A DNA stretch of 64,000 nt from Phytophthora sp. 'mugwort' (lineage: Eukaryota > Oomycota > Peronosporomycetes > Peronosporales > Peronosporaceae), in the NCBI GenBank assembly GCA_033558025.1, contig JAUCEF010000016.1, forward strand, positions 2,790,001 through 2,854,000. Direction: 5' to 3'. Below are positions 18,085 through 58,902 of the stretch, piece by piece. Within the stretch, counting starts at the first letter, position 1; every line of letters starts with the position of its first letter. Position numbers and translations under genes: made by a program. The notes below the pieces were generated by a model. That model saw nothing but the letters and a program-made list of their open reading frames with translations, searched no databases and had not been told where the DNA came from.

Positions 18085-18206
18085 CTTTAGCCGCTCCCTT
18101 CGTGCCTTTCGGTCGTTTGAATTTGTGTGCTTATATTTAAAATACCAGCATACAAAAAAACAAGTATACAAAATCTAAATGTAGCCACTTTTAGGGTCAC
18201 TAGACG

Positions 18207-21640: not shown

Positions 21641-21743
21641 TGCCGCCAAAAACTATTAAGTATTGGGAAAATGTGTAACCTTCAAACCGGGGTTACACTA
21701 TGGGTTACACTTATTGCTGGTCAAGACAATATCTCTCAAAACG
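21641..21743. promoter_or_regulatory. 103-bp bidirectional promoter with three GGTTACAC boxes
   Basis: Only 103 bases separate the divergent ATGs of the RAD5-like and MiaB-like genes. The octamer GGTTACAC occurs at 21691-21698 and 21703-21710 and inverted (GTGTAACC) at 21673-21680. The two direct copies are 12 bases apart, and the inverted copy can pair with either. They are candidate binding sites for one shared factor. Confidence 0.5.
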
Positions 21744-23742: not shown

Positions 23743-24260
23743 TTAATGAGCCGCGGCGGCGCCCTTGGCAGCCTCCGCCGCACGCTTCTGCATCTCCATT
23801 TGCGTGTTGGAGATCTACACAGCAGCAACATAACGTCAGCCTCATCTCCCGTCTCCCTACAGAGCCATTGTCACGCACATTGGTCCGGATACCGATGGCT
23901 TCCTTCTCCTTGGCCTCGATCTTGGTGTTCACTTTGCTCCTGTACAGTACCCACGTTAATGAGTCGGTTCATCCCCATCCACTCTCGTCCACTCGCTGCT
24001 TACAGTTCATTGTTAATGAACTCGAGACGTTTATTGACGTTCGTCTTGGCCTCGTCCACGTCCTGTTTGAGCAGCACGGGACCCACAAGTTTGTAGACCT
24101 TGGCCTCGTCGTCCAGTAGGTCCAACTCCTGCTTCACCATGTTGTTCTCGTTGGCCTGCTGCGCGTACGTCTGTCGCTGTGTCGCCAGCACTTGCACCTC
24201 GTCCTGTAGCGCCCGGTAGCGCGTCATCTCCGCCTCCACTTGGTCCTTGAGCTCCGCCAT
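23743..24260 (-). CDS. PFD6: Prefoldin subunit 6 (beta-type)
   Basis: Three exons, 24260-24004, 23939-23879 and 23814-23743, join in phase to 129 residues. Prefoldin is the hexameric jellyfish-shaped chaperone that hands nascent actin and tubulin to the CCT chaperonin; subunit 6 is a beta-class member. The sequence has the expected two helices (MAELKDQVEAEMTRYRALQD, then the C-terminal helix) around a central beta-hairpin region (NNMVKQELDLLDDEAKVYKL, GPVLLKQDVDEAK). The ATG at 24260 is preferred over an in-frame GTG two codons upstream. The tail is Ala-rich (MQKRAAEAAKGAAAAH). The gene lies 169 bases downstream of the giant gene on the same strand. Confidence 0.92.
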
Positions 24261-24429
24261 CTTCACGCGTTCTTAACTCCACCAATGGTCGTCAAGTGTT
24301 AAAGTATACGTGTATACACACCTTGCTTGTTAGAAAAGTCGATTGAAAAATGAAATGTGTATTTAGAATATGCAACAATCATCTTAAACTAGCTACGATA
24401 TGCACGTGCATGGCCCCGTACCTGACGCC

Positions 24430-27400
24430 TTAGGCGGCAGTGGTGCTGCTGAGGCCGCTGTTGGTGGACTGGCGCGTTGTCGACACTCGCTTGGTGCCGC
24501 GAGGGGACGTGATCTCGGTCGTAGTCACTGTAAAGTCGCCCTCGATTCTAATCTTGCGTGTCGTGGTTGAGCCTGCAGTGGCAGTCGACTGGGTTCTCAT
24601 AGGAGACGCGTAGGTCGTCGTCTTGCTCGTCTGGCTCGACGATGGGGACGCGTACGCCGTGATCTTCATACTCCTCGTTGCGTCATTGGACTGTGGCGAC
24701 GCGAAACCTGCAGCAGAGCTCATCGGTGATCCGAACGGCGACCTCGCTGGAGATCCCCGTGTAAAGCGGTGCTTCAGCTGACGTCGAAGAGGAGAATACG
24801 ATGTGCTCAGTCGGGCCGTCGAGCCGCTGTGCGCCGGGCTACCCACGGGGGTGCTCGTCCGCGACAGAGCGCCAGCACCGGGGCCACCCGTGACGAGTAC
24901 CATGTCGTCCGCAAACTTCATCAATCCGGAGAACATGCGACTACGGCGCAGTTGACGTTGGTTGTTAAAGCCTTGGATCATGGTGACCTGGTGGTGAATT
25001 TGCTGCTCTTCGGTCAAATTCAGCAAGTAATCGGACACGGTGACACCAGGAGCACAGACAAAGCCGAGCTCTTGGAAGTACGTGACCAGCGACTCTCCTG
25101 TGCCGTGGAACAGCACTTCGCCATTCTCCAGAATCAGAACATCTTCATAGTACGCACACTTCTTCGGCACAATCTGAAGCGCGGACACCACGAACTCCAC
25201 TTCCATCACTGAAGAACCGTCAGCGCCATTGCGGGTGCGGCACACTTCGTCAATCAGCAGCGTTCGCTGGTACTTTCCAACGCCAAGACCCAACTGCTGA
25301 ACTGCAACGCCGGGGTAGTGAAAGGACAGGGAGCGCGCAATTGTCCACGTGGCTCGCTTTTCTTCGTACGTGCCCGTGTTGAAGAATCCATCCTCAAAGC
25401 TCACGAAGTTTTGGTCGCAGAAGTCACGGGCAAAGTTGAGTAGTTCCTTTCGGGGCATGGCCTTTGACAGGCTACGGCCGCGACGCTGCACGTACGACAC
25501 GAACTGAGGAAGCCATGTCTTGACAAGACGGCGTCGCTTCATGTTCCACCAGGCAGAACCCTTGTCAGTACGCTGGACCGTCGTCACTGCTAATTTCTCT
25601 TCCCAACCCAACTCCGCGGCCGTGCGCTTCGAGCCGTCAATGCCAACAACAGATGTAACACTGATGACACCTAACGCATCTTCATCATTCTCCTCGCGGG
25701 TCTCCGTCTCCACCGTCGTATTCGTCTCGCCCGCCACAGTCTTCGTCACCGTCGTCGTCTCCACCTCGATCATACGCTTCACCGCGCCGCTGGACGTAGT
25801 CACCTTGCGGATCGTCGTGCGAACCGTCTTAGTAATGACATTTCCGTTCGCGCCCGTTGTGCGGAACACCTCGGTCTTCACCGTGGCGCCCGCAGAACCG
25901 TCCTCATCTGTCTCCTGCATGGTCGACGAGCTAATCAGAGTCGCTTCCGACGCGGACGTGCTGCTTGTGGTCGCGCTCGTGACACTGCTGTCATCGACCT
26001 CCTCGCGGGTCTCCGTCTCCATCGTCGTATTCGTCTCGCCCGCCACAGTCTTCGTCACCGTCGTCGTCTCCACCTCGATCATACGCTTCACCGCGCCGCT
26101 GGACGTAGTCACCTTGCGGATCGTCGTGCGAACCGTCTTAGTAATGACATTTCCGTTCGCGCCCGTTGTGCGGAACACCTCGGTCTTCACCGTGGCGCCC
26201 GCAGAACCGTCCTCATCTGTCTCCTGCATGGTCGACGAGCTAATCAGAGTCGCTTCCGACGCGGACGTGCTGCTTGTGGTCGCGCTCGTGACACTGCTGT
26301 CATCGACCTCCTCGCGGGTCTCCGTCTCCACCGTCGTATTCGTCTCGCCCGCCACAGTCTTCGTCACCGTCGTCGTCTCCACCTCGATCATACGCTTCAC
26401 CGCGCCGCTGGACGTAGTCACCTTGCGGATCGTCGTGCGAACCGTCTTAGTAATGACATTTCCGTTCGCGCCCGTTGTGCGGAACACCTCGGTCTTCACC
26501 GTGGCGCCCGCAGAACCGTCCTCATCCGTCTCCTGCATGGTCGACGAGCTAATCAGAGTCGCTTCCGACGCGGACGTGCTGCTTGTGGTCGCGCTCGTGA
26601 CACTGCTGTCATCGACCTCCTCGCGGGTCTCCGTCTCCACCGTCGTATTCGTCTCGCCCGCCACAGTCTTCGTCACCGTCGTCGTCTCCACCTCGATCAT
26701 ACGCTTCACCGCGCCGCTGGACGTAGTCACCTTGCGGATCGTCGTGCGAACCGTCTTAGTAATGACATTTCCGTTCGCGCCCGTTGTGCGGAACACCTCG
26801 GTCTTCACCGTGGCGCCCGCAGAACCGTCCTCATCTGTCTCCTGCATGGTCGACGAGCTAATCAGAGTCGCTTCCGACGCGGACGTGCTGCTTGTGGTCG
26901 CGCTCGTGACACTGCTGTCATCGACCTCCTCGCGGGTCTCCGTCTCCACCGTCGTATTCGTCTCGCCCGCCACAGTCTTCGTCACCGTCGTCGTCTCCAC
27001 CTCGATCATACGCTTCACCGCGCCGCTGGACATAGTCACCTTGCGGATCGTCGTGCAAACCGTCTTAGTAATGACATTTCCGTTCGCGCCCATTGTGCGG
27101 AACACCTCGGTCTTCACCGTGGCGCCCGCAGAACCGTCCTCATCCGTCTCCTGCATGGTCGACGAGCTAATCAGAGTCGCTTCCGACGCGGACGTGCTGC
27201 TTGTGGTCGCGCTCGTGACACTGCTGTCATCGACCTCCTCGCGGGTCTCCGTCTCCACCGTCGTATTCGTCTCGCCCGCCACAGTCTTCGTCACCGTCGT
27301 CGTCTCCACCTCGATCATACGCTTCACCGCGCCGCTGGACGTAGTCACCTTGCGGATCGTCGTGCGAACCGTCTTAGTAATGACATTTCCGTTCGCGCCC

Positions 27401-30400
27401 GTTGTGCGGAACACCTCGGTCTTCACCGTGGCGCCCGCAGAACCGTCCTCATCTGTCTCCTGCATGGTCGACGAGCTAATCAGAGTCGCTTCCGACGCGG
27501 ACGTGCTGCTTGTGGTCGCGCTCGTGACACTGCTGTCATCGACCTCCTCGCGGGTCTCCGTCTCCACCGTCGTATTCGTCTCGCCCGCCACAGTCTTCGT
27601 CACCGTCGTCGTCTCCACCTCGATCATACGCTTCACCGCGCCGCTGGACATAGTCACCTTGCGGATCGTCGTGCAAACCGTCTTAGTAATGACATTTCCG
27701 TTCGCGCCCATTGTGCGGAACACCTCGGTCTTCACCGTGGCGCCCGCAGAACCGTCCTCATCCGTCTCCTGCATGGTCGACGAGCTAATCAGAGTCGCTT
27801 CCGACGCGGACGTGCTGCTTGTGGTCGCGCTCGTGACACTGCTGTCATCGACCTCCTCGCGGGTCTCCGTCTCCACCGTCGTATTCGTCTCGCCCGCCAC
27901 AGTCTTCGTCACCGTCGTCGTCTCCACCTCGATCATACGCTTCACCGCGCCGCTGGACGTAGTCACCTTGCGGATCGTCGTGCGAACCGTCTTAGTAATG
28001 ACATTTCCGTTCGCGCCCGTTGTGCGGAACACCTCGGTCTTCACCGTGGCGCCCGCAGAACCGTCCTCATCTGTCTCCTGCATGGTCGACGAGCTAATCA
28101 GAGTCGCTTCCGACGCGGACGTGCTGCTTGTGGTCGCGCTCGTGACACTGCTGTCATCGACCTCCTCGCGGGTCTCCGTCTCCACCGTCGTATTCGTCTC
28201 GCCCGCCACAGTCTTCGTCACCGTCGTCGTCTCCACCTCGATCATACGCTTCACCGCGCCGCTGGACGTAGTCACCTTGCGGATCGTCGTGCGAACCGTC
28301 TTAGTAATGACATTTCCGTTCGCGCCCGTTGTGCGGAACACCTCGGTCTTCACCGTGGCGCCCGCAGAACCGTCCTCATCTGTCTCCTGCATGGTCGACG
28401 AGCTAATCAGAGTCGCTTCCGACGCGGACGTGCTGCTTGTGGTCGCGCTCGTGACACTGCTGTCATCGACCTCCTCGCGGGTCTCCGTCTCCACCGTCGT
28501 ATTCGTCTCGCCCGCCACAGTCTTCGTCACCGTCGTCGTCTCCACCTCGATCATACGCTTCACCGCGCCGCTGGACGTAGTCACCTTGCGGATCGTCGTG
28601 CGAACCGTCTTAGTAATGACATTTCCGTTCGCGCCCGTTGTGCGGAACACCTCGGTCTTCACCGTGGCGCCCGCAGAACCGTCCTCATCTGTCTCCTGCA
28701 TGGTCGACGAGCTAATCAGAGTCGCTTCCGACGCGGACGTGCTGCTTGTGGTCGCGCTCGTGACACTGCTGTCATCGACCTCCTCGCGGGTCTCCGTCTC
28801 CACCGTCGTATTCGTCTCGCCCGCCACAGTCTTCGTCACCGTCGTCGTCTCCACCTCGATCATACGCTTCACCGCGCCGCTGGACGTAGTCACCTTGCGG
28901 ATCGTCGTGCGAACCGTCTTAGTAATGACATTTCCGTTCGCGCCCGTTGTGCGGAACACCTCGGTCTTCACCGTGGCGCCCGCAGAACCGTCCTCATCCG
29001 TCTCCTGCATGGTCGACGAGCTAATCAGAGTCGCTTCCGACGCGGACGTGCTGCTTGTGGTCGCGCTCGTGACACTGCTGTCATCGACCTCCTCGCGGGT
29101 CTCCGTCTCCACCGTCGTATTCGTCTCGCCCGCCACAGTCTTCGTCACCGTCGTCGTCTCCACCTCGATCATACGCTTCACCGCGCCGCTGGACGTAGTC
29201 ACCTTGCGGATCGTCGTGCAAACCGTCTTAGTAATGACATTTCCGTTCGCGCCCATTGTGCGGAACACCTCGGTCTTCACCGTGGCGCCCGCAGAACCGT
29301 CCTCGTCCGTCTCCTGCGTGGTCGACGAGCTCTTCGCAATTGCTTCCACCGCCTCCTTAGTCTTAAAGTTGGACGTCTCCGTGGTCTCCTCCTCGGTCGT
29401 GCCGGTGGTCGGCTTGCGCTTCGGCTTGCGGTGCTTCTTCGACTTGGGCTTCTTGCCCTCCGTCACGTCCGTCTCCTCCACGGTCTCCTCCACGATCTCG
29501 GTCGTCTCCGTCGTTTCGACCGTCACCTCGCTCGTAGACGGCACCTCCTCGGTCGTCTCAGTGGTGGTCACCTCCGTCACTTCCGTCACTTCCGTCGTCT
29601 CCTCAGGCTTCACGTCGGTCTTCTCGACCGTCTCGGTGGTCTCTTCCGTCACCTCGGTGGTCTCCTCCTCGGTCGTGCCGGCGGTCGGCTTGCGCTTCGG
29701 CTTGCGGTGCTTCTTCGACTTGGGCTTCTTGTCCTCCGTCACGTCCGTCTCCTCCACGGTCTCCTCCACGATCTCGGTCGTCTCCGTCGTTTCGACCGTC
29801 ACCTCGCTCGTAGACGGCACCTCCTCGGTCGTCTCAGTGGTGGTCACCTCCGTCACCTCCGTCACTTCCGTCGTCTCCTCAGGCTTCACGTCGGTCGTCT
29901 CGACCGTCTCGGTGGTCTCTTCCGTCACCTCGGTGGTCTCCTCCTCGGTCGTGCCGGCGGTCGGCTTGCGCTTCGGCTTGCGGTGCTTCTTCGACTTGGG
30001 CTTCTTGCCCTCCGTCACGTCCGTCTCCTCCACGGTCTCCTCCACGATCTCGGTCGTCTCCGTCGTTTCGACCGTCACCTCGCTCGTAGACGGCACCTCC
30101 TCGGTCGTCTCAGTGGTGGTCACCTCCGTCACTTCCGTCACTTCCGTCGTCTCCTCAGGCTTCACGTCGGTCGTCTCGACCGTCTCGGTGGTCTCTTCCG
30201 TCACCTCGGTGGTCTCCTCCTCGGTCGTGCCGGCGGTCGGCTTGCGCTTCGGCTTGCGGTGCTTCTTCGACTTGGGCTTCTTGCCCTCCGTCACGTCCGT
30301 CTCCTCCACGGTCTCCTCCACGATCTCGGTCGTCTCCGTCGTTTCGACCGTCACCTCGCTCGTAGACGGCACCTCCTCGGTCGTCTCAGTGGTGGTCACC

Positions 30401-54400: not shown

Positions 54401-57400
54401 GTCGTGCGCACCGTCTTGGTCACGATGCTGCCGTCGGCTTCCTCTGAGCGGAACACCTCCGTCTTCACCGTCTCGCCGGGCGCAGCGCCAGCCTCCTCAG
54501 TCGAGCTGATCGCAGTCATGCCCGCGGTCGAAGCAATTGTCGCAGCCGTCTCGGTGGCGGTCTCCGTCGTGGTCTCCGTCTCCACCGTCGTGCTCTTGGC
54601 ACCGTCCTGGGTCTCCGTCTCGGTCGTCGTCTCCACCTCGATCGTCGTCACGAGCTCGCCTGCAGGGGACGTCTCCGTGCGCGTGGTCGTGCGCACCGTC
54701 TTGGTCACGATGCTGCCGTCGGCTTCCTCTGAGCGGAACACTTCCGTCTTCACCGTCTCGCCGGGCGCAGCGCCAGCCTCCTCAGTCGAGCTGATCGCAG
54801 TCATGCCCGCGGTCGAAGCAATTGTCGCAGCCGTCTCGGTGGCGGTCTCCGTCGTGGTCTCCGTCTCCACCGTCGTGCTCTTGGCACCGTCCTGGGTCTC
54901 CGTCTCGGTCGTCGTCTCCACCTCGACCGTCGTCACGAGCTCGCCTGCAGGGGACGTCTCCGTGCGCGTGGTCGTGCGCACCGTCTTGGTCACGATGCTG
55001 CCGTCGGCTTCCTCTGAGCGGAACACCTCCGTCTTCACCGTCTCGCCGGGCGCAGCGCCAGCCTCCTCAGTCGAGCTGATCGCAGTCATGCCCGCGGTCG
55101 AAGCAATTGTCGCAGCCGTCTCGGTGGCGGTCTCCGTCGTGGTCTCCGTCTCCACCGTCGTGCTCTTGGCACCGTCCTGGGTCTCCGTCTCGGTCGTCGT
55201 CTCCACCTCGACCGTCGTCACGAGCTCGCCTGCAGGGGACGTCTCCGTGCGCGTGGTCGTGCGCACCGTCTTGGTCACGATGCTGCCGTCGGCTTCCTCT
55301 GAGCGGAACACTTCCGTCTTCACCGTCTCGCCGGGCGCAGCGCCAGCCTCCTCAGTCGAGCTGATCGCAGTCATGCCCGCGGTCGAAGCAATTGTCGCAG
55401 CCGTCTCGGTGGCGGTCTCCGTCGTGGTCTCCGTCTCCACCGTCGTGCTCTTGGCACCGTCCTGGGTCTCCGTCTCGGTCGTCGTCTCCACCTCGACCGT
55501 CGTCACGAGCTCGCCTGCAGGGGACGTCTCCGTGCGCGTGGTCGTGCGCACCGTCTTGGTCACGATGCTGCCGTCGGCTTCCTCTGAGCGGAACACCTCC
55601 GTCTTCACCGTCTCGCCGGGCGCAGCGCCAGCCTCCTCAGTCGAGCTGATCGCAGTCATGCCCGCGGTCGAAGCAATTGTCGCAGCCGTCTCGGTGGCGG
55701 TCTCCGTCGTGGTCTCCGTCTCCATCGTCGTGCTCTTGGCACCGTCCTGGGTCTCCGTCTCGGTCGTCGTCTCCACCTCGATCGTCGTCACGAGCTCGCC
55801 GGCAGGGGACGTCTCCGTGCGCGTGGTCGTGCGCACCGTCTTGGTCACGATGCTGCCGTCGGCTTCCTCTGAGCGGAACACCTCCGTCTTCATCGTCTCG
55901 CCGGGCGCAGCGCCAGCCTCCTCAGTCGAGCTGATCGCAGTCATGCCCGCGGTCGAAGCAATTGTCGCAGCCGTCTCGGTGGCGGTCTCCGTCGTGGTCT
56001 CCGTCTCCACCGTCGTGCTCTTGGCACCGTCCTGGGTCTCCGTCTCGGTCGTCGTCTCCACCTCGATCGTCGTCACGAGCTCGCCGGCAGGGGACGTCTC
56101 CGTGCGCGTGGTCGTGCGCACCGTCTTGGTCACGATGCTGCCGTCGGCTTCCTCTGAGCGGAACACTTCCGTCTTCACCGTCTCGCCGGGCGCAGCGCCA
56201 GCCTCCTCAGTCGAGCTGATCGCAGTCATGCCCGCGGTCGAAGCAATTGTCGCAGCCGTCTCGGTGGCGGTCTCCGTCGTGGTCTCCGTCTCCACCGTCG
56301 TGCTCTTGGCACCGTCCTGGGTCTCCGTCTCGGTCGTCGTCTCCACCTCGACCGTCGTCACGAGCTCGCCGGCAGGGGACGTCTCCGTGCGCGTGGTCGT
56401 GCGCACCGTCTTGGTCACGATGCTGCCGTCGGCTTCCTCTGAGCGGAACACCTCCGTCTTCACCGTCTCGCCGGGCGCAGCGCCAGCCTCCTCAGTCGAG
56501 CTGATCGCAGTCATGCCCGCGGTCGAAGCAATTGTCGCAGCCGTCTCGGTGGCGGTCTCCGTCGTGGTCTCCGTCTCCACCGTCGTGCTCTTGGCACCGT
56601 CCTGGGTCTCCGTCTCGGTCGTCGTCTCCACCTCGACCGTCGTCACGAGCTCGCCTGCAGGGGACGTCTCCGTGCGCGTGGTCGTGCGCACCGTCTTGGT
56701 CACGATGCTGCCGTCGGCTTCCTCTGAGCGGAACACCTCCGTCTTCACCGTCTCGCCGGGCGCAGCGCCAGCCTCCTCAGTCGAGCTGATCGCAGTCATG
56801 CCCGCGGTCGAAGCAATTGTCGCAGCCGTCTCGGTGGCGGTCTCCGTCGTGGTCTCCGTCTCCACCGTCGTGCTCTTGGCACCGTCCTGGGTCTCCGTCT
56901 CGGTCGTCGTCTCCACCTCGACCGTCGTCACGAGCTCGCCTGCAGGGGACGTCTCCGTGCGCGTGGTCGTGCGCACCGTCTTGGTCACGATGCTGCCGTC
57001 GGCTTCCTCTGAGCGGAACACCTCCGTCTTCACCGTCTCGCCGGGCGCAGCGCCAGCCTCCTCAGTCGAGCTGATCGCAGTCATGCCCGCGGTCGAAGCA
57101 ATTGTCGCAGCCGTCTCGGTGGCGGTCTCCGTCGTGGTCTCCGTCTCCACCGTCGTGCTCTTGGCACCGTCCTGGGTCTCCGTCTCGGTCGTCGTCTCCA
57201 CCTCGATCGTCGTCACGAGCTCGCCGGCAGGGGACGTCTCCGTGCGCGGGGTCGTGCGCACCGTCTTGGTCACGATGCTGCCATCGGGTTTCTCTGATCG
57301 GAACACCTCTCTTTTAACACTCTCATGTGGTGCTGAAGCCTTTTGATGTTTTGTTGCTGTCCAGTGTGCGACAAGTTTACGAGCAGCGGCTTTCGTCGTG

Positions 57401-58902
57401 AGCGGTGGACTGTGTGTTTTTTGCTGGAACCACGACATGAGCCAGTCTCCAGCATCAAAGCCTTCTTCGTCGTCACTATCAGAGAAACTACCTTCTGAGT
57501 TTAAATCGTAGATGAAAGCACCAGGTATTGGTTTGACGGAGGCTTCTTCTTGCTTTAACGACGACACAGCTTGCATCTTGCTAAAGTTGCCGATGTTCAC
57601 GAGATACCTATCACTCTCCGTTGAAGCTTCGACAATAGGTGACCCAGCGAGCAAAACAACCTCATCGGCAAGTCTAAAGATCGTCGTTGACTTTGTCGTT
57701 GCTTGTTGCTGGTCAAAAAGCGCCGCTGTCGCATTCTTGTCGCCCAAACACATAGCCACATCCTTCTGTGATGGGCATTGAACACCTAGTTCTTGCACGT
57801 AATTGATGACTTCGTCCCACGAACCGCTACGCACAACCTCTCCATCATGAAGCACAATAACATTTTTTGCGCGTGTGCAGTCCTCGGACGGGTCGCGCAA
57901 CAGCGAAATCACGATCACTTTATGCAACCACTTAGACAAACGACGAGTAATCGAGATGAACTCAAATGAGGATTCGTTCTCCAGTTGAGCCTGGTCCATG
58001 AGCACCGCATTCGTCTTGCTAAAGCGCAGGCCACAGCGGTGGATCGGGAACTGGGGGTAGTAGAGCGTGAAGGCGCGGGCGAGCTCCCACGCCACCTTGC
58101 GCTCCTTGGAGCGGCGACTCGCCACAGCCAGCGCACGCTCCGCCAGACTTTTTTGTTTTTCTTGGTCCACTTGATACTTCAACACACGGAAACGGCAAAA
58201 TGCACGCGCAAAAATAAACAACTCGACGGCGGTCACCGTCTCGAAGTGGCGACCGTGGCTCGTTACATACGTCAAGAAGGCAGGCAGCAACTTCTTAAAA
58301 TCCTCCTTCTTCCACTCCCCACCTGCCTCAAGACTGGCCACGTCGGCATGCGCGCCGCCCTGAGGCGCAACGACGGTGCTGGTGAAGAGTACGCCCGAGT
58401 TTTGACTCAGGGCGCGCAGCGTCTCCGCCGTCGTTTCCTTAACGCCCATGGCGGCAGCCGTGGCGCTGGCGCTCCACGCGTGCCAGGCGAGCTCCGCGAG
58501 GCTCTGCGCGGTCTTCTTCTCCTCGCTCACGCTCTCAAAGTCGGCTACAGCACGGGCCGCTGCAGCTGCCGTAGGGCTCGCGCCCTGCTGTTGCTTCGTC
58601 TCGTCGAGCTCCGTCTCCGTGGTGGTGACGATCTCAGTCGTCGTCTCGCTCGAGCCGTCGGGTCTGGTCACCACGGTGGTGACGGTGCAGCCGTCGGCGC
58701 TGGTCGTGACCGCCGTCGTGGTGCCGTCAGCGACCTTGGAGACGGCGGTCGTGGAGCCGTCCTTGGCTGTCGTGACTGTGTCACGCTGCTTGGTCTCAGG
58801 CTTTTTGTCCTGCTGCTGCTGGGCCGGTGGGCTGCGGGTCACCGTGGGGTGCTTCAGACGCGCGTCGTCCTTGGCCACCTCGTTGGACTCGGTGCCGCCC
58901 AT
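24430..58902 (-). CDS. Giant tandem-repeat protein, 11,490 aa, ABCG-like ends
   Basis: One ATG-to-stop frame of 34,473 bases without an in-frame stop. Order: unique N-terminus (residues 1-527), array A (95-residue units), a linker with WFMSLFK, array B (89/92-residue Thr/Glu units with Lys/Arg clusters), array C (103-residue units homologous to A), and a unique C-terminus of about 420 residues ending in a Ser/Thr-rich tail. The N- and C-terminal unique domains resemble each other and the Walker-B-to-D-loop half of oomycete ABCG/PDR nucleotide-binding domains, but no Walker A is present. There is no signal peptide or membrane segment. The start MGGTES fits an N-myristoylation motif. The frame staying open through well over a hundred repeats argues strongly that it is translated. 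The family was not recognised. A structural, membrane-tethered or phosphorylation-rich scaffold role is only inference. Copy numbers depend on assembly accuracy. Confidence 0.85.
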   Translation of the reverse strand: MGGTESNEVAKDDARLKHPTVTRSPPAQQQQDKKPETKQRDTVTTAKDGSTTAVSKVADGTTTAVTTSADGCTVTTVVTRPDGSSETTTEIVTTTETELDETKQQQGASPTAAAAARAVADFESVSEEKKTAQSLAELAWHAWSASATAAAMGVKETTAETLRALSQNSGVLFTSTVVAPQGGAHADVASLEAGGEWKKEDFKKLLPAFLTYVTSHGRHFETVTAVELFIFARAFCRFRVLKYQVDQEKQKSLAERALAVASRRSKERKVAWELARAFTLYYPQFPIHRCGLRFSKTNAVLMDQAQLENESSFEFISITRRLSKWLHKVIVISLLRDPSEDCTRAKNVIVLHDGEVVRSGSWDEVINYVQELGVQCPSQKDVAMCLGDKNATAALFDQQQATTKSTTIFRLADEVVLLAGSPIVEASTESDRYLVNIGNFSKMQAVSSLKQEEASVKPIPGAFIYDLNSEGSFSDSDDEEGFDAGDWLMSWFQQKTHSPPLTTKAAARKLVAHWTATKHQKASAPHESVKREVFRSEKPDGSIVTKTVRTTPRTETSPAGELVTTIEVETTTETETQDGAKSTTVETETTTETATETAATIASTAGMTAISSTEEAGAAPGETVKTEVFRSEEADGSIVTKTVRTTTRTETSPAGELVTTVEVETTTETETQDGAKSTTVETETTTETATETAATIASTAGMTAISSTEEAGAAPGETVKTEVFRSEEADGSIVTKTVRTTTRTETSPAGELVTTVEVETTTETETQDGAKSTTVETETTTETATETAATIASTAGMTAISSTEEAGAAPGETVKTEVFRSEEADGSIVTKTVRTTTRTETSPAGELVTTVEVETTTETETQDGAKSTTVETETTTETATETAATIASTAGMTAISSTEEAGAAPGETVKTEVFRSEEADGSIVTKTVRTTTRTETSPAGELVTTIEVETTTETETQDGAKSTTVETETTTETATETAATIASTAGMTAISSTEEAGAAPGETMKTEVFRSEEADGSIVTKTVRTTTRTETSPAGELVTTIEVETTTETETQDGAKSTTMETETTTETATETAATIASTAGMTAISSTEEAGAAPGETVKTEVFRSEEADGSIVTKTVRTTTRTETSPAGELVTTVEVETTTETETQDGAKSTTVETETTTETATETAATIASTAGMTAISSTEEAGAAPGETVKTEVFRSEEADGSIVTKTVRTTTRTETSPAGELVTTVEVETTTETETQDGAKSTTVETETTTETATETAATIASTAGMTAISSTEEAGAAPGETVKTEVFRSEEADGSIVTKTVRTTTRTETSPAGELVTTVEVETTTETETQDGAKSTTVETETTTETATETAATIASTAGMTAISSTEEAGAAPGETVKTEVFRSEEADGSIVTKTVRTTTRTETSPAGELVTTIEVETTTETETQDGAKSTTVETETTTETATETAATIASTAGMTAISSTEEAGAAPGETVKTEVFRSEEADGSIVTKTVRTTTRTETSPAGELVTTVEVETTTETETQDGAKSTTVETETTTETATETAATIASTAGMTAISSTEEAGAAPGETVKTEVFRSEEADGSIVTKTVRTTTRTETSPAGELVTTVEVETTTETETQDGAKSTTVETETTTETATETAATIASTAGMTAISSTEEAGAAPGETVKTEVFRSEEADGSIVTKTVRTTTRTETSPAGELVTTVEVETTTETETQDGAKSTTLETETTTETATETAATIASTAGMTAISSTEEAGAAPGETVKTEVFRSEEADGSIVTKTVRTTTRTETSPAGELVTTVEVETTTETETQDGAKSTTVETETTTETATETAATIASTAGMTAISSTEEAGAAPGETVKTEVIRSEEADGSIVTKTVRTTTRTETSPAGELVTTIEVETTTETETQDGAKSTTVETETTTETATETAATIASTAGMTAISSTEEAGAAPGETVKTEVFRSEEADGSIVTKTVRTTTRTETSPAGELVTTIEVETTTETETQDGAKSTTMETETTTETATETAATIASTAGMTAISSTEEAGAAPGETVKTEVFRSEEADGSIVTKTVRTTTRTETSPAGELVTTVEVETTTETETQDGAKSTTVETETTTETATETAATIASTAGMTAISSTEEAGAAPGETVKTEVFRSEEADGSIVTKTVRTTTRTETSPAGELVTTVEVETTTETETQDGAKSTTVETETTTETATETAATIASTAGMTAISSTEEAGAAPGETVKTEVFRSEEADGSIVTKTVRTTTRTETSPAGELVTTVEVETTTETETQDGAKSTTLETETTTETATETAATIASTAGMTAISSTEEAGAAPGETVKTEVFRSEEADGSIVTKTVRTTTRTETSPAGELVTTVEVETTTETETQDGAKSTTVETETTTETATETAATIASTAGMTAISSTEEAGAAPGETVKTEVFRSEEADGSIVTKTVRTTTRTETSPAGELVTTVEVETTTETETQDGAKSTTVETETTTETATETAATIASTAGMTAISSTEEAGAAPGETVKTEVFRSEEADGSIVTKTVRTTTRTETSPAGELVTTVEVETTTETETQDGAKSTTLETETTTETATETAATIASTAGMTAISSTEEAGAAPGETVKTEVFRSEEADGSIVTRTVRTTTRTETSPAGELVTTVEVETTTETETQDGAKSTTLETETTTETATETAATIASTAGMTAISSTEEAGAAPGETVKTEVFRSEEADGSIVTKTVRTTTRTETSPAGELVTTVEVETTTETETQDGAKSTTVETETTTETATETAATIASTAGMTAISSTEEAGAAPGETVKTEVFRSEEADGSIVTKTVRTTTRTETSPAGELVTTIEVETTTETEVPVELSARLTSEDEPNWFMSLFKSKEAETPKPIEEKPSCVHKAVENSTIVKIVETKPAMTKQETPIIFEAADATTKHSAQQIDETTEVTVETTDVKPEETTEVTYVTTTETTEEVPSTSEVTVETTETTEIVEETVEETDVTEGKKPKSKKHRKPKRKPTAGTTEEETTEVTEETTETVEKTDVKPEETTEVTEVTEVTTTETTEEVPSTSEVTVETTETTEIVEETVEETDVTEGKKPKSKKHRKPKRKPTAGTTEEETTEVTEETTETVEKTDVKPEETTEVTEVTEVTTTETTEEVPSTSEVTVETTETTEIVEETVEETDVTEGKKPKSKKHRKPKRKPTAGTTEEETTEVTEETTETVETTDVKPEETTEVTEVTEVTTTETTEEVPSTSEVTVETTETTEIVEETVEETDVTEGKKPKSKKHRKPKRKPTAGTTEEETTEVTEETTETVETTDVKPEETTEVTEVTTTETTAEVPSTSEVTVETTETTEIVEETVEETDVTEGKKPKSKKHRKPKRKPTAGTTEEETTEVTEETTETVETTDVKPEETTEVTEVTEVTTTETTEEVPSTSEVTVETTETTEIVEETVEETDVTEGKKPKSKKHRKPKRKPTAGTTEEETTEVTEETTETVEKTDVKPEETTEVTEVTEVTTTETTEEVPSTSEVTVETTETTEIVEETVEETDVTEGKKPKSKKHRKPKRKPTAGTTEEETTEVTEETTETVEKTDVKPEETTEVTEVTEVTTTETTEEVPSTSEVTVETTETTEIVEETVEETDVTEGKKPKSKKHRKPKRKPTAGTTEEETTEVTEETTETVETTDVKPEETTEVTEVTEVTTTETTEEVPSTSEVTVETTETTEIVEETVEETDVTEGKKPKSKKHRKPKRKPTAGTTEEETTEVTEETTETVEKTDVKPEETTEVTEVTEVTTTETTEEVPSTSEVTVETTETTEIVEETVEETDVTEGKKPKSKKHRKPKRKPTAGTTEEETTEVTEETTETVEKTDVKPEETTEVTEVTTTETTEEVPSTSEVTVETTETTEIVEETVEETDVTEGKKPKSKKHRKPKRKPTAGTTEEETTEVTEETTETVEKTDVKPEETTEVTEVTTTETTEEVPSTSEVTVETTETTEIVEETVEETDVTEDKKPKSKKHRKPKRKPTAGTTEEETTEVTEETTETVEKTDVKPEETTEVTEVTEVTTTETTEEVPSTSEVTVETTETTEIVEETVEETDVTEGKKPKSKKHRKPKRKPTAGTTEEETTEVTEETTETVEKTDLKPEETTEVTEVTTTETTEEVPSTSEVTVETTETTEIVEETVEETDVTEGKKPKSKKHRKPKRKPTAGTTEEETTEVTEETTETVEKTDVKPEETTEVTEVTEVTTTETTEEVPSTSEVTVETTETTEIVEETVEETDVTEGKKPKSKKHRKPKRKPTAGTTEEETTEVTEETTETVEKTDVKPEETTEVTEVTEVTTTETTEEVPSTSEVTVETTETTEIVEETVEETDVTEGKKPKSKKHRKPKRKPTAGTTEEETTEVTEETTETVEKTDVKPEETTEVTEVTTTETTEEVPSTSEVTVETTETTEIVEETVEETDVTEGKKPKSKKHRKPKRKPTAGTTEEETTEVTEETTETVEKTDVKPEETTEVTEVTEVTTTETTEEVPSTSEVTVETTETTEIVEETVEETDVTEGKKPKSKKHRKPKRKPTAGTTEEETTEVTEETTETVEKTDLKPEETTEVTEVTTTETTEEVPSTSEVTVETTETTEIVEETVEETDVTEGKKPKSKKHRKPKRKPTAGTTEEETTEVTEETTETVEKTDVKPEETTEVTEVTEVTTTETTEEVPSTSEVTVETTETTEIVEETVEETDVTEGKKPKSKKHRKPKRKPTAGTTEEETTEVTEETTETVEKTDLKPEETTEVTEVTTTETTEEVPSTSEVTVETTETTEIVEETVEETDVTEGKKPKSKKHRKPKRKPTAGTTEEETTEVTEETTETVETTDVKPEETTEVTEVTEVTTTETTEEVPSTSEVTVETTETTEIVEETVEETDVTEGKKPKSKKHRKPKRKPTAGTTEEETTEVTEETTETVEKTDVKPEETTEVTEVTEVTTTETTEEVPSTSEVTVETTETTEIVEETVEETDVTEGKKPKSKKHRKPKRKPTAGTTEEETTEVTEETTETVETTDVKPEETTEVTEVTEVTTTETTEEVPSTSEVTVETTETTEIVEETVEETDVTEGKKPKSKKHRKPKRKPTAGTTEEETTEVTEETTETVETTDVKPEETTEVTEVTEVTTTETTEEVPSTSEVTVETTETTEIVEETVEETDVTEGKKPKSKKHRKPKRKPTAGTTEEETTEVTEETTETVEKTDLKPEETTEVTEVTTTETTEEVPSTSEVTVETTETTEIVEETVEETDVTEGKKPKSKKHRKPKRKPTAGTTEEETTEVTEETTETVETTDVKPEETTEVTEVTEVTTTETTEEVPSTSEVTVETTETTEIVEETVEETDVTEGKKPKSKKHRKPKRKPTAGTTEEETTEVTEETTETVEKTDVKPEETTEVTEVTTTETTEEVPSTSEVTVETTETTEIVEETVEETDVTEGKKPKSKKHRKPKRKPTAGTTEEETTEVTEETTETVEKTDVKPEETTEVTEVTEVTTTETTEEVPSTSEVTVETTETTEIVEETVEETDVTEGKKPKSKKHRKPKRKPTAGTTEEETTEVTEETTETVETTDVKPEETTEVTEVTEVTTTETTEEVPSTSEVTVETTETTEIVEETVEETDVTEGKKPKSKKHRKPKRKPTAGTTEEETTEVTEETTETVEKTDLKPEETTEVTEVTTTETTEEVPSTSEVTVETTETTEIVEETVEETDVTEGKKPKSKKHRKPKRKPTAGTTEEETTEVTEETTETVETTDVKPEETTEVTEVTEVTTTETTEEVPSTSEVTVETTETTEIVEETVEETDVTEGKKPKSKKHRKPKRKPTAGTTEEETTEVTEETTETVEKTDVKPEETTEVTEVTEVTTTETTEEVPSTSEVTVETTETTEIVEETVEETDVTEGKKPKSKKHRKPKRKPTAGTTEEETTEVTEETTETVEKTDLKPEETTEVTEVTTTETTEEVPSTSEVTVETTETTEIVEETVEETDVTEGKKPKSKKHRKPKRKPTAGTTEEETTEVTEETTETVETTDVKPEETTEVTEVTEVTTTETTEEVPSTSEVTVETTETTEIVEETVEETDVTEGKKPKSKKHRKPKRKPTAGTTEEETTEVTEETTETVEKTDVKPEETTEVTEVTTTETTEEVPSTSEVTVETTETTEIVEETVEETDVTEDKKPKSKKHRKPTAGTTEEETTEVTEETTETVETTDVKPEETTEVTEVTEVTTTETTEEVPSTSEVTVETTETTEIVEETVEETDVTEDKKPKSKKHRKPKRKPTAGTTEEETTEVTEETTETVEKTDVKPEETTEVTEVTEVTTTETTEEVPSTSEVTVETTETTEIVEETVEETDVTEDKKPKSKKHRKPKRKPTAGTTEEETTEVTEETTETVETTDVKPEETTEVTEVTEVTTTETTEEVPSTSEVTVETTETTEIVEETVEETDVTEDKKPKSKKHRKPKRKPTAGTTEEETTEVTEETTETVETTDVKPEETTEVTEVTTTETTEEVPSTSEVTVETTETTEIVEETVEETDVTEGKKPKSKKHRKPKRKPTAGTTEEETTEVTEETTETVETTDVKPEETTEVTEVTTTETTEEVPSTSEVTVETTETTEIVEETVEETDVTEGKKPKSKKHRKPKRKPTAGTTEEETTEVTEETTETVETTDVKPEETTEVTEVTTTETTEEVPSTSEVTVETTETTEIVEETVEETDVTEGKKPKSKKHRKPKRKPTAGTTEEETTEVTEETTETVEKTDVKPEETTEVTEVTEVTTTETTEEVPSTSEVTVETTETTEIVEETVEETDVTEDKKPKSKKHRKPKRKPTAGTTEEETTEVTEETTETVETTDVKPEETTEVTEVTTTETTEEVPSTSEVTVETTETTEIVEETDVTEGKKPKSKKHRKPKRKPTAGTTEEETTEVTEETTETVETTDVKPEETTEVTEVTTTETTEEVPSTSEVTVETTETTEIVEETVEETDVTEDKKPKSKKHRKPKRKPTAGTTEEETTEVTEETTETVETTDVKPEETTEVTEVTEVTTTETTEEVPSTSEVTVETTETTEIVEETVEETDVTEDKKPKSKKHRKPKRKPTAGTTEEETTEVTEETTETVETTDVKPEETTEVTEVTTTETTEEVPSTSEVTVETTETTEIVEETVEETDVTEGKKPKSKKHRKPKRKPTAGTTEEETTEVTEETTETVETTDVKPEETTEVTEVTEVTTTETTEEVPSTSEVTVETTETTEIVEETVEETDVTEGKKPKSKKHRKPKRKPTAGTTEEETTEVTEETTETVETTDVKPEETTEVTEVTEVTTTETTEEVPSTSEVTVETTETTEIVEETVEETDVTEGKKPKSKKHRKPKRKPTAGTTEEETTEVTEETTETVEKTDLKPEETTEVTEVTTTETTEEVPSTSEVTVETTETTEIVEETVEETDVTEGKKPKSKKHRKPKRKPTAGTTEEETTEVTEETTETVETTDVKPEETTEVTEVTTTETTEEVPSTSEVTVETTETTEIVEETVEETDVTEGKKPKSKKHRKPKRKPTAGTTEEETTEVTEETTETVEKTDVKPEETTEVTEVTEVTTTETTEEVPSTSEVTVETTETTEIVEETVEETDVTEDKKPKSKKHRKPKRKPTAGTTEEETTEVTEGTTETVETTDVKPEETTEVTEVTEVTTTETTEEVPSTSEVTVETTETTEIVEETVEETDVTEGKKPKSKKHRKPKRKPTAGTTEEETTEVTEETTETVETTDVKPEETTEVTEVTEVTTTETTEEVPSTSEVTVETTETTEIVEETVEETDVTEGKKPKSKKHRKPKRKPTAGTTEEETTEVTEETTETVETTDVKPEETTEVTEVTEVTTTETTEEVPSTSEVTVETTETTEIVEETVEETDVTEDKKPKSKKHRKPKRKPTAGTTEEETTEVTEETTETVETTDVKPEETTEVTEVTEVTTTETTEEVPSTSEVTVETTETTEIVEETVEETDVTEDKKPKSKKHRKPKRKPTAGTTEEETTEVTEGTTETVETTDVKPEETTEVTEVTEVTTTETTEEVPSTSEVTVETTETTEIVEETVEETDVTEGKKPKSKKHRKPKRKPTAGTTEEETTEVTEETTETVEKTDVKPEETTEVTEVTEVTTTETTEEVPSTSEVTVETTETTEIVEETVEETDVTEGKKPKSKKHRKPKRKPTAGTTEEETTEVTEETTETVETTDVKPEETTEVTEVTTTETTEEVPSTSEVTVETTETTEIVEETVEETDVTEDKKPKSKKHRKPKRKPTAGTTEEETTEVTEGTTETVETTDVKPEETTEVTEVTEVTTTETTEEVPSTSEVTVETTETTEIVEETVEETDVTEGKKPKSKKHRKPKRKPTAGTTEEETTEVTEETTETVETTDVKPEETTEVTEVTEVTTTETTEEVPSTSEVTVETTETTEIVEETVEETDVTEGKKPKSKKHRKPKRKPTAGTTEEETTEVTEETTETVEKTDVKPEETTEVTEVTEVTTTETTEEVPSTSEVTVETTETTEIVEETVEETDVTEDKKPKSKKHRKPKRKPTAGTTEEETTEVTEETTETVETTDVKPEETTEVTEVTEVTTTETTEEVPSTSEVTVETTETTEIVEETVEETDVTEGKKPKSKKHRKPKRKPTAGTTEEETTEVTEETTETVETTDVKPEETTEVTEVTEVTTTETTEEVPSTSEVTVETTETTEIVEETVEETDVTEGKKPKSKKHRKPKRKPTAGTTEEETTEVTEETTETVETTDVKPEETTEVTEVTTTETTEEVPSTSEVTVETTETTEIVEETVEETDVTEDKKPKSKKHRKPKRKPTAGTTEEETTEVTEETTETVETTDVKPEETTEVTEVTEVTTTETTEEVPSTSEVTVETTETTEIVEETVEETDVTEGKKPKSKKHRKPKRKPTAGTTEEETTEVTEETTETVETTDVKPEETTEVTEVTEVTTTETTEEVPSTSEVTVETTETTEIVEETVEETDVTEGKKPKSKKHRKPKRKPTAGTTEEETTEVTEETTETVETTDVKPEETTEVTEVTEVTTTETTEEVPSTSEVTVETTETTEIVEETVEETDVTEGKKPKSKKHRKPKRKPTAGTTEEETTEVTEETTETVETTDVKPEETTEVTEVTEVTTTETTEEVPSTSEVTVETTETTEIVEETVEETDVTEGKKPKSKKHRKPKRKPTAGTTEEETTEVTEETTETVETTDVKPEETTEVTEVTTTETTEEVPSTSEVTVETTETTEIVEETVEETDVTEGKKPKSKKHRKPKRKPTAGTTEEETTEVTEETTETVETTDVKPEETTEVTEVTTTETTEEVPSTSEVTVETTETTEIVEETVEETDVTEDKKPKSKKHRKPKRKPTAGTTEEETTEVTEETTETVETTDVKPEETTEVTEVTTTETTAEVPSTSEVTVETTETTEIVEETVEETDVTEGKKPKSKKHRKPKRKPTAGTTEEETTEVTEETTETVETTDVKPEETTEVTEVTEVTTTETTEEVPSTSEVTVETTETTEIVEETVEETDVTEGKKPKSKKHRKPKRKPTAGTTEEETTEVTEETTETVETTDVKPEETTEVTEVTEVTTTETTEEVPSTSEVTVETTETTEIVEETVEETDVTEGKKPKSKKHRKPKRKPTAGTTEEETTEVTEETTETVETTDVKPEETTEVTEVTEVTTTETTEEVPSTSEVTVETTETTEIVEETVEETDVTEDKKPKSKKHRKPKRKPTAGTTEEETTEVTEETTETVEKTDVKPEETTEVTEVTEVTTTETTEEVPSTSEVTVETTETTEIVEETVEETDVTEGKKPKSKKHRKPKRKPTTGTTEEETTETSNFKTKEAVEAIAKSSSTTQETDEDGSAGATVKTEVFRTMGANGNVITKTVCTTIRKVTTSSGAVKRMIEVETTTVTKTVAGETNTTVETETREEVDDSSVTSATTSSTSASEATLISSSTMQETDEDGSAGATVKTEVFRTTGANGNVITKTVRTTIRKVTTSSGAVKRMIEVETTTVTKTVAGETNTTVETETREEVDDSSVTSATTSSTSASEATLISSSTMQETDEDGSAGATVKTEVFRTTGANGNVITKTVRTTIRKVTTSSGAVKRMIEVETTTVTKTVAGETNTTVETETREEVDDSSVTSATTSSTSASEATLISSSTMQETDEDGSAGATVKTEVFRTTGANGNVITKTVRTTIRKVTTSSGAVKRMIEVETTTVTKTVAGETNTTVETETREEVDDSSVTSATTSSTSASEATLISSSTMQETDEDGSAGATVKTEVFRTTGANGNVITKTVRTTIRKVTTSSGAVKRMIEVETTTVTKTVAGETNTTVETETREEVDDSSVTSATTSSTSASEATLISSSTMQETDEDGSAGATVKTEVFRTMGANGNVITKTVCTTIRKVTMSSGAVKRMIEVETTTVTKTVAGETNTTVETETREEVDDSSVTSATTSSTSASEATLISSSTMQETDEDGSAGATVKTEVFRTTGANGNVITKTVRTTIRKVTTSSGAVKRMIEVETTTVTKTVAGETNTTVETETREEVDDSSVTSATTSSTSASEATLISSSTMQETDEDGSAGATVKTEVFRTMGANGNVITKTVCTTIRKVTMSSGAVKRMIEVETTTVTKTVAGETNTTVETETREEVDDSSVTSATTSSTSASEATLISSSTMQETDEDGSAGATVKTEVFRTTGANGNVITKTVRTTIRKVTTSSGAVKRMIEVETTTVTKTVAGETNTTVETETREEVDDSSVTSATTSSTSASEATLISSSTMQETDEDGSAGATVKTEVFRTTGANGNVITKTVRTTIRKVTTSSGAVKRMIEVETTTVTKTVAGETNTTVETETREEVDDSSVTSATTSSTSASEATLISSSTMQETDEDGSAGATVKTEVFRTTGANGNVITKTVRTTIRKVTTSSGAVKRMIEVETTTVTKTVAGETNTTMETETREEVDDSSVTSATTSSTSASEATLISSSTMQETDEDGSAGATVKTEVFRTTGANGNVITKTVRTTIRKVTTSSGAVKRMIEVETTTVTKTVAGETNTTVETETREENDEDALGVISVTSVVGIDGSKRTAAELGWEEKLAVTTVQRTDKGSAWWNMKRRRLVKTWLPQFVSYVQRRGRSLSKAMPRKELLNFARDFCDQNFVSFEDGFFNTGTYEEKRATWTIARSLSFHYPGVAVQQLGLGVGKYQRTLLIDEVCRTRNGADGSSVMEVEFVVSALQIVPKKCAYYEDVLILENGEVLFHGTGESLVTYFQELGFVCAPGVTVSDYLLNLTEEQQIHHQVTMIQGFNNQRQLRRSRMFSGLMKFADDMVLVTGGPGAGALSRTSTPVGSPAHSGSTARLSTSYSPLRRQLKHRFTRGSPARSPFGSPMSSAAGFASPQSNDATRSMKITAYASPSSSQTSKTTTYASPMRTQSTATAGSTTTRKIRIEGDFTVTTTEITSPRGTKRVSTTRQSTNSGLSSTTAA
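24900..25560 (-). other. C-terminal ABCG/PDR-like degenerate domain
   Basis: This is the paralogue of the N-terminal domain. It starts with LVKTWLPQFVSYVQRRGRSL and ELLNFARDFC, continues with WTIARSLSFHYP and TLLIDEVCRTRNGADGSSVM, and ends in YYEDVLILENGEVLFHGTGE and VTYFQELGFVCAPGVTVSDY. It is closer to real PDR proteins than the N-terminal copy and keeps a DE pair at the Walker-B position (LLIDEV). No Walker A precedes it. A glycine-rich GGPGAGALS follows further on but lacks the required Lys. Confidence 0.75.
25690..29340 (-). repeat. Array C: 12 copies of a 309-bp (103-aa) repeat
   Basis: The unit encodes TVKTEVFRTTGANGNVITKT, VRTTIRKVTTSSGAVKRMIE, VETTTVTKTVAGETNTTVET, ETREEVDDSSVTSATTSSTS and ASEATLISSSTMQETDEDGS. 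Spacing is a constant 309 bases. Rare variants (FRTMGANG with VCTTIRKVTM) recur in alternate units, showing block duplication. The unit is homologous to that of array A (shared TVKTEVFR, TKTVRTT, EVETTT, TVETET). Confidence 0.97.
29353..50080 (-). repeat. Array B: ~76 copies of a 267/276-bp (89/92-aa) repeat
   Basis: Each unit encodes a basic cluster (KKPKSKKHRKPKRKP) followed by about 75 residues of Thr, Glu and Val (TTEEETTEVTEETTETVE, then DVKPEETTEVTEVT). The length difference is one EVT triplet more or less. The first and last copies of GTGCTTCTTCGACTTGGG on the plus strand are 20,451 bases apart. With one unit lacking KPKR and one lacking VEET (12 bases each), the arithmetic gives 75 intervals, about 50 long and 25 short. 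Marker variants are VEKTD/VETTD, DVKPE/DLKPE and EGKKP/EDKKP, plus silent changes. Confidence 0.95.
50337..57321 (-). repeat. Array A: ~24.5 copies of a 285-bp (95-aa) repeat
   Basis: The unit encodes TVKTEVFRSEEADGSIVTKT, then RTETSPAGELVTT, EVETTTETETQDGAKS, TVETETTTETATETAATIA and STAGMTAISSTEEAGAAPGE. Landmarks recur exactly every 285 bases from 50547 to 57102, so no unit has changed length. The first unit (nearest the N-terminus) is the most diverged (SVKREVFRSEKPDG); the last is cut short at EVETTTETEVPVEL. Variants are nearly all single-base (for example STTV, STTL or STTM before ETETTTE). Confidence 0.97.
57627..58320 (-). other. N-terminal ABCG/PDR-like degenerate domain (residues ~195-425)
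   Basis: Residues 195-280 contain a helical segment (FKKLLPAFLTYVTSHGRHFE, ELFIFARAFC). Residues 298-392 then follow the PDR pattern: VLMDQAQLEN where a normal domain has a Walker B and D-loop, WLHKVIVISLLRDPSEDC matching the conserved switch strand, NVIVLHDGEVVRSG matching the strand after it, and VINYVQELGVQCPSQKDVAM matching the YFESLGFxCPPxxDVADYL pattern. The Walker-B glutamate and the usual STGLDS stretch are lost. No Walker A or signature motif is present, so ATP hydrolysis is unlikely. Confidence 0.7.

What the first reader, a model, noticed from the sequence alone, without database searches (positions are those of the whole stretch)
24430..58902. A single 34.5-kb reading frame encodes an 11,490-residue repeat protein
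The frame runs from a credible ATG to TAA through well over one hundred tandem repeats without a stop or frameshift. Every repeat length (267, 276, 285, 309 bases) and both 12-base deletions are multiples of three. Random decay would break such a frame quickly, so selection for a translated product is the simplest reading. Proteins of this size are rare in oomycetes and I do not recognise this architecture.
Basis: partly seen in the sequence, partly recalled or inferred. Interest (0 to 1): 0.92.

Follow-up and report, generated by a model that had tools for sequence, protein, structure and literature searches.

The report
Giant repeat protein with dead ABC-ATPase caps
A water mould of the Phytophthora group carries what looks like a real gene for a protein of about 11,500 amino acids, built from over a hundred repeats between worn-down pieces of a drug-pump motor; it is probably a very long molecular spacer or tether held at a membrane, and I found no description of it.

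Summary
The frame is real: minus strand, 58902 to 24430, ATG to TAA, 11,490 codons, no stop, about 1.25 MDa. Better evidence supports a translated gene: relatives in five other Peronosporaceae species, two of them (Peronosclerospora sorghi, Phytophthora boehmeriae) with the same two ends; unique parts open at chance about 10^-15.6; dN/dS 0.33 in the true frame against a repeat unit of an 8,287-residue paralogue about 333 kb away. Both ends carry a domain derived from the first ATPase domain of PDR/ABCG pumps without canonical Walker A or signature motif. Array A is predicted as five-stranded beta-meanders; array B is a Thr/Glu/Val/Lys-rich chain with 76 basic patches. Both giants start MGG[T/A]ES, a myristoylation-type start; the paralogue ends in five annexin blocks. 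Best reading: a cytoplasmic, membrane-anchored, very long spacer or tether with dead ABC-ATPase caps. The gene family is well supported; the mechanism is inference; full length as one polypeptide is untested.

The parts
24430..58902 (-). Whole reading frame, 11,490 aa, ATG at 58900-58902, TAA at 24430-24432
58885..58902 (-). N-terminus MGGTES: N-myristoylation-type start (Gly2, Ser6; consensus recalled), kept in the P. sorghi and P. boehmeriae models and as MGGAES in the paralogue
   Evidence: two N-myristoyltransferase loci in the genome
58603..58788 (-). Short T-rich stretch with DG/PDG turns like those of the array units, aa 39-100 (judged by eye; not modelled)
57637..58317 (-). N-terminal pseudo-NBD (aa 196-422), PDR/ABCG NBD1-derived, no canonical Walker A, no SGGE signature block
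50338..57315 (-). Array A, 25 units of 95 aa (the last one cut short); predicted five-stranded beta-meander per unit
49906..50337 (-). Linker between arrays A and B; the first ~100 aa are non-repetitive and fade into B-like sequence
29410..49905 (-). Array B, 92/89-aa units, T/E/V/K-rich, a KKPKSKKHRKPKRKP-type basic patch per unit (76, one shortened)
29278..29409 (-). Transition from array B to array C
25696..29277 (-). Array C, 12 units of 103 aa, homologous to the array A unit
24433..25695 (-). Unique C-terminus, 421 aa, 56-80% identical in five other Peronosporaceae species
24883..25539 (-). C-terminal pseudo-NBD (aa 11122-11340), no canonical Walker A, signature block missing
24568..24882 (-). 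Basic Ser/Pro-rich tail
24433..24567 (-). C-terminal three-stranded beta element, the part of that model with the highest pLDDT (70-78 in ten-residue means)
25520..57346 (+). Antisense open frame of 10,608 codons across the arrays; taken as a by-product of composition, not a gene

Best explanation
A protein-coding gene of a family found here only in Peronosporaceae. It would make a soluble, cytoplasmic protein of about 1.25 MDa with no signal-peptide-like start and no transmembrane-like segment. Inferred working: the myristoylated N-terminus holds one end at a membrane; two dead ATPase domains, taken over from a PDR/ABCG pump and without the ATP-binding and signature motifs, serve as binding modules near either end; in between, beta-meander arrays (A and C) flank a 6,800-residue charged Thr/Glu-rich chain (B) that acts as a very long flexible spacer or entropic spring with 76 regularly spaced basic docking patches. 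The protein would tether or space structures over long distances. The paralogue, with five annexin blocks at its C-terminus, would be the Ca2+-switched membrane-to-membrane version. Shown: frame, relatives with the same ends, paralogue, origin of the caps, loss of the motifs, annexins in the paralogue. Predicted: beta fold of array A. Inferred: myristoylation, tethering, elasticity, binding partners.
For: C-terminus alike in P. fragariae (75%), P. cactorum (80%), Peronosclerospora sorghi (71%), Nothophytophthora (65%), P. boehmeriae (56% over the query; 69% over the 354 residues its model keeps); the other end in P. sorghi and P. boehmeriae at 61-62%. Unique parts open at about 10^-15.6. dN/dS 0.33 in frame for the A unit against the paralogue unit, bootstrap pS-pN 0.15 to 0.37. 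Caps: phmmer of the window's C and N caps against 17 own-genome PDR NBD1 pieces gives best E 8e-29 and 5e-23, 0 hits among 340 shuffled decoys; no canonical Walker A (GxxxxGK[S/T]) and no SGG[E/Q] anywhere in the window protein, the paralogue or P0001-P0005; the signature block is a gap in 7 of 7 pseudo-NBDs aligned and 9 of 9. One branch separates 10 pseudo from 17 PDR rows. No splice-donor GTRNGT in arrays or linker (0). No hydrophobic stretch: best 19-residue Kyte-Doolittle mean 1.37; first 60 residues at most -0.14. Beta strands in array A, 167 of 285 residues at pLDDT 70 or more. Paralogue with 11 and 10 Pfam annexin stretches in the two pieces scanned and five copies of the annexin block.
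Against: No transcript, peptide or long-read evidence was available. Relatives in the database are short models (832-1,435 aa) with only 1-4 core hairpin motifs and 0-2 basic patches; nothing was returned at 5,115-16,275 aa (509 candidates scored) or 1,650-5,250 aa (973 scored). So great length may be peculiar to this lineage and not needed for function, or collapsed elsewhere; three of the five are partial models. A-C and C-paralogue dN/dS are weaker (0.63, 0.59). The pseudo-NBD model was poor (pLDDT 37.7), so retention of an ABC fold is untested. Elasticity, partners and localisation are inference.
Confidence: 0.5

Rival explanations
1. The gene and its ends are real, but the arrays are passive passengers: the ancestral protein is a short pseudo-ABC protein of about 1,000-1,500 residues, and in-frame units expand by unequal exchange and are merely tolerated. 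Copy number in this assembly may also be inflated or polymorphic.
For: P. sorghi model with both ends has 4 core hairpins and no basic patch; P. boehmeriae 1 and 2. Near-identical units in scrambled order, 32 distinct among 74 B intervals. Within-array variants are not strongly constrained: nonsynonymous 9 of 14 (A), 4 of 5 (C), 3 of 7 (B 276-bp units), 4 of 9 (paralogue).
Against: The A unit has dN/dS 0.33 against the paralogue unit; core hairpins recur in all five relatives and in a second giant gene of 8,287 codons; the basic patch is present in four of five relatives.
Confidence: 0.25
2. The pseudo-NBDs are regulators or decoys that pair with live PDR/ABCG pumps, and the arrays only space or cluster pumps at the membrane.
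For: Caps derive from PDR NBD1; many PDR genes in this genome; predicted membrane anchor.
Against: No interaction evidence; long branches to all PDR rows; the ABC dimer interface includes the missing motifs (recalled).
Confidence: 0.13
3. A secreted, mucin-like or vesicle-stored cell-surface protein, like the Thr-rich Car proteins (recalled) or the Lpv glycoproteins of Phytophthora.
For: Thr 28.5%, Glu 21.4%; a glycoprotein Lpv over 400 kDa is known in zoospore vesicles (passages of PMC3869178).
Against: No hydrophobic N-terminus; ends derive from a cytosolic ATPase domain.
Confidence: 0.06
4. A non-coding satellite whose frame is open by composition and homogenisation.
For: Antisense strand open for 10,608 codons; single-unit open-frame chance near 0.1.
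Against: Conserved protein ends in other genera, 10^-15.6 for the unique parts, frame-specific dN/dS.
Confidence: 0.02

Closest known systems
PDR-type ABCG transporters of oomycetes (first nucleotide-binding domain)
   Same: Both caps align over the NBD1 region downstream of Walker A to the own-genome PDR transporters (best E 8e-29; aligned ranges)
   Different: No canonical Walker A and no SGGE signature block; no transmembrane-like segment; the domain sits near either end of a giant repeat protein
Titin, PEVK segment (recalled)
   Same: Works-like only: a giant chain; the B unit is a charged E/V/K/P-containing polyampholyte with acidic and basic stretches
   Different: 29 of 92 residues of the B unit are Thr; no Ig or FnIII domains in the pieces scanned; no sequence kinship shown
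Annexins
   Same: The paralogue carries five annexin blocks with a KGxG[T/S]...E type site in all five
   Different: The window protein has none in the pieces scanned
Phytophthora Lpv proteins of large peripheral vesicles
   Same: Very large proteins in a Phytophthora species (over 400 kDa, PMC3869178 passages; repeats recalled)
   Different: Lpv is a vesicle glycoprotein; this one has no signal-peptide-like start; sequences not compared
Single-layer beta-sheet proteins such as OspA
   Different: No significant Foldseek match (0 of 571 at E 0.001); no sequence kinship

Membership tests
PDR/ABCG transporter | Sequence homology to NBD1 | tested here: met
   phmmer 8e-29 (C cap), 5e-23 (N cap), 2.5e-17 (paralogue) against 17 own-genome PDR pieces; 0 of 340 decoys hit
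PDR/ABCG transporter | Walker A motif | tested here: not met
   No GxxxxGK[S/T] in the window protein, the paralogue or P0001-P0005. A VVGIDGSKR-like stretch aligns to the P-loop position in C caps; it may be a remnant. The PDR pieces were chosen for having the motif, 17 of the 21 loci tried
PDR/ABCG transporter | ABC signature (SGGE) block | tested here: not met
   Gap in 7 of 7 and 9 of 9 pseudo-NBDs; no SGG[E/Q] in any of the seven proteins scanned
PDR/ABCG transporter | Walker B | tested here: inconclusive
   LLIDE-like in the C cap, VLMDQ/VLMDE in the N cap
PDR/ABCG transporter | Transmembrane domains | tested here: not met
   Best 19-residue Kyte-Doolittle mean 1.37 in 11,490 aa; a hydropathy test only
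Annexin (window protein) | PF00191 repeats | tested here: not met
   No annexin hit in the pieces scanned: N-term 534 aa, C-term 421 aa and 1,624 aa, 439 aa of A, 500 aa of B; the rest is mostly more of the same arrays
Annexin (paralogue) | PF00191 repeats | tested here: met
   E 4.6e-121 with 11 stretches and 7.6e-92 with 10 stretches in the two pieces scanned
Secreted mucin-like Car / Lpv proteins | Signal peptide | tested here: not met
   Hydropathy of the first 60 residues peaks at -0.14; a hydropathy test only
Secreted mucin-like Car / Lpv proteins | Sequence similarity of the repeats | not tested
   No Car or Lpv sequence was fetched
Titin-like | Ig/FnIII domains | tested here: not met
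   No such Pfam hit in the pieces scanned
N-myristoylated proteins | MGxxxS/T start | tested here: met
   MGGTES in the window, P0003 and P0005; MGGAES in the paralogue; consensus recalled
N-myristoylated proteins | The lipid itself | not testable with these tools
   Needs mass spectrometry or labelling
OspA-type single-layer beta sheet | Fold match | tested here: inconclusive

The most novel reading that the evidence does not exclude
A Peronosporaceae-specific class of giant cytoplasmic membrane tethers: a lost drug-pump ATPase was turned into a docking cap near both ends of a micrometre-scale beta/polyampholyte cable, one version anchored by myristate alone, its chromosomal neighbour adding five annexin blocks as a Ca2+-operated second membrane anchor. 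Such a pair could hold and release cortical vesicles or membranes during the Ca2+-driven transitions of the oomycete life cycle.
Probability: 0.22. Interest if true: 0.88.

Novelty: new variant of a known kind. Interest (0 to 1): 0.7.

Why it matters
At 11,490 residues this is a very long predicted protein, and it is a clear case of a transporter ATPase domain that lost its catalytic motifs and was reused as a structural cap. The relatives found here are all in Peronosporaceae (family of Nothophytophthora and Peronosclerospora checked), the window's genome has a second giant member with annexins, and none of ten paper searches turned the family up (of these 9, 19, 20, 41, 56, 64 and 65 bear on it; listings and a few passages only). 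It also shows that long homogenised arrays with an open frame prove little by themselves: the antisense strand is open as well.

Tried and rejected

Within-array polymorphism as a test of selection: too few variants (35; 0 stops). My first check of Walker A used caps cut close to the match, so it could not have shown the motif; one search repeated it on whole proteins.

Full report
Observation. The frame exists as described but lies on the minus strand: ATG at 58902, TAA at 24430, 11,490 residues, no stop; calculated mass about 1,249 kDa. Thr is 28.5% and Glu 21.4% of it. The window is bases 2,790,001-2,854,000 of contig C16 of an 86.26-Mb assembly in 154 contigs. That it is a Phytophthora or close kin is inferred from the relatives found; the species is not known to me.

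Anatomy. From N to C: a unique start of 529 residues, 25 A units (95 aa; earlier patterns missed one variant), a linker, array B (92- or 89-residue units; 75 intact basic patches and one shortened), 12 C units (103 aa), and a unique 421-residue C-terminus. A and C units are homologous and also resemble the paralogue's unit.

Is the open frame evidence? Less than it looks. Ten of the 24 A units counted, 32 of 74 B intervals and 5 of 11 C intervals are distinct, so the arrays repeat a handful of sequences. A random unit of that dinucleotide make-up is open in one given frame with probability 0.11, 0.11 and 0.04. The opposite strand is open for 10,608 codons, from just inside the unique N-terminus to inside the unique C-terminus. 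In the N-terminal 560 and C-terminal 430 codons every frame but the sense one has 7 to 28 stops, and the chance that the unique parts are all open in one frame is about 10^-15.6. There are no GTRNGT splice donors in the arrays or linker, three in the N-terminal and three in the C-terminal part, so splicing around the whole array is not excluded.

Selection. Comparing the A consensus unit with the paralogue's unit gives dS 0.75, dN 0.25, ratio 0.33 in the coding frame; the other five frames give 1.63, 1.66, 1.42, 0.52 and 1.81 (the 0.52 is the open antisense frame). A versus C gives 0.63 and C versus paralogue 0.59, with bootstrap intervals of pS-pN of -0.008 to 0.238 and 0.023 to 0.271. Within arrays variants are too few to tell.

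Relatives in other species. A search with the C-terminus (825-2,625 aa; the 7,984 candidates sharing most words were scored) found five proteins: P. fragariae 832 aa (75%), P. cactorum 875 aa (80%), Peronosclerospora sorghi 1,345 aa (71%), Nothophytophthora 1,435 aa (65%), P. boehmeriae 1,106 aa (56%; 69% over 354 residues). P. sorghi and P. boehmeriae also carry the N-terminus (61% and 62%), beginning MGGTES. All five hold core array hairpins (1 to 4) and four of five hold basic patches. Nothing was returned at 5,115-16,275 aa with the N-terminal region or 1,650-5,250 aa with the C-terminal region. The short models may be true or collapsed: the P. sorghi authors say that long-read assemblies would help to complete centromeres and telomeres (passage), and three of the five are labelled partial.

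Paralogue. At C16:3181672-3206538, minus strand, about 333 kb from the window gene, an open frame of 8,289 codons gives an 8,287-residue protein from its first ATG. It starts MGGAES, has 24 hairpin units of mostly 101 aa, a second array with 24 copies of its marker motif, one pseudo-NBD and five annexin blocks at the C-terminus. Its antisense strand is open for 5,890 codons, too. Beside it, C16:3208001-3211500 (+) holds a decayed relic with cap and A-unit remnants and stops in all three frames.

The caps. Both window ends and the paralogue match the first ATPase domain of PDR transporters of the same genome: best E 8e-29, 5e-23 and 2.5e-17 against 17 fetched PDR pieces, with none of 340 shuffled decoys hit. 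Those 17 of 21 loci tried were chosen for holding Walker A and SGGE, so their having both is by construction. No canonical Walker A and no SGG[E/Q] occurs anywhere in the window protein, the paralogue or the five relatives. The segment with the signature is a gap in every pseudo-NBD aligned (7, 9); a Walker-B-like strand remains, and in the C caps a VVGIDGSKR-like stretch sits at the P-loop position, perhaps a remnant. In a tree of 27 rows one branch parts the 10 pseudo rows from the 17 PDR rows (100/99), with a long-branch warning. The tree is unrooted, so a single takeover is compatible with it, not proved. Pfam does not recognise the caps; a PDB profile search gives ABCG25 at E 0.013 only.

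Fold of the repeats. AlphaFold2 on three A units gave mean pLDDT 68.4 (pTM 0.36) with five antiparallel strands per unit; 167 of 285 residues are at 70 or more, the spacers between units drop to about 28-55. Structure searches found nothing significant. Two of the five alignment rows were window sequences and three were relatives. The C-terminus model failed except for a three-stranded end.

Mechanism. Inferred: N-myristoyl anchor (motif recalled; two NMT loci), dead caps as binding modules, arrays as spacer. B is a polyampholyte, 27 acidic and 11 basic residues per 92, with basic patches at a fixed spacing that could dock on an acidic partner. The annexin ends of the paralogue suggest a membrane-related job for the family. 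I give about 0.95 to 'real coding gene', about 0.75 to 'arrays translated in one polypeptide', and about 0.45 to the tether or spacer mechanism; these are judgements.

Novelty. Giant repeat proteins as such are known; the abstract of PMC11573180 (listing, passages) counts more than 41,000 proteins over 5,000 residues. I found no description of this family in the ten paper searches listed under Why it matters; subscription papers are not covered. I therefore call it a new variant of a known kind (giant structural repeat protein) with a cap that I have not seen described.

Noticed in passing
G000 C16:3181672-3206538 (L029-L031): Second giant gene, 8,287 aa, same kind of hairpin units plus a second array, one pseudo-NBD and five annexin blocks.
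   Followed up: yes
G000 C16:3208001-3211500 (L031, L032): Decayed relic of a family member in the opposite orientation next to the paralogue, with stops in all three frames read.
   Followed up: partly
G000 C11:1654216-1655642, C12:620013-620536, C5:6467788-6473207, C14:1409808-1409906: Scattered short fragments similar to the paralogue's annexin block or second array, or to the window protein's S/P-rich tail (C14), several with frame changes.
   Followed up: partly
window 14934-16583 (+): Coiled-coil-like ORF (by eye) of 549 aa with no Pfam hit; 47% identical to the C-terminal extension of the Nothophytophthora model P0004, so that model probably fuses two genes or the locus is rearranged there.
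   Followed up: partly
window 24000-24266 (-): Prefoldin subunit (PF01920, 1.1e-19) directly downstream of the giant gene on the same strand.
   Followed up: yes
window 60305-63367 (+): 1,020-aa ORF with a weak BED zinc finger (3.3e-4), upstream and divergent.
   Followed up: no
window 17110-21649 (-): SNF2-type helicase with RING finger (18207-20159) next to an ORF (20378-21649) with a HIRAN match below its cut-off, perhaps one gene split by an intron.
   Followed up: no
window 8641-10494 (+): ORF matching protein C10, Ig-like and WD40 models in one frame: an odd mix.
   Followed up: no
G000 C16:3214327-3219987 (L032): Three near-identical copies of a sugar-kinase-like frame (name from recall) in both orientations near the paralogue.
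   Followed up: no
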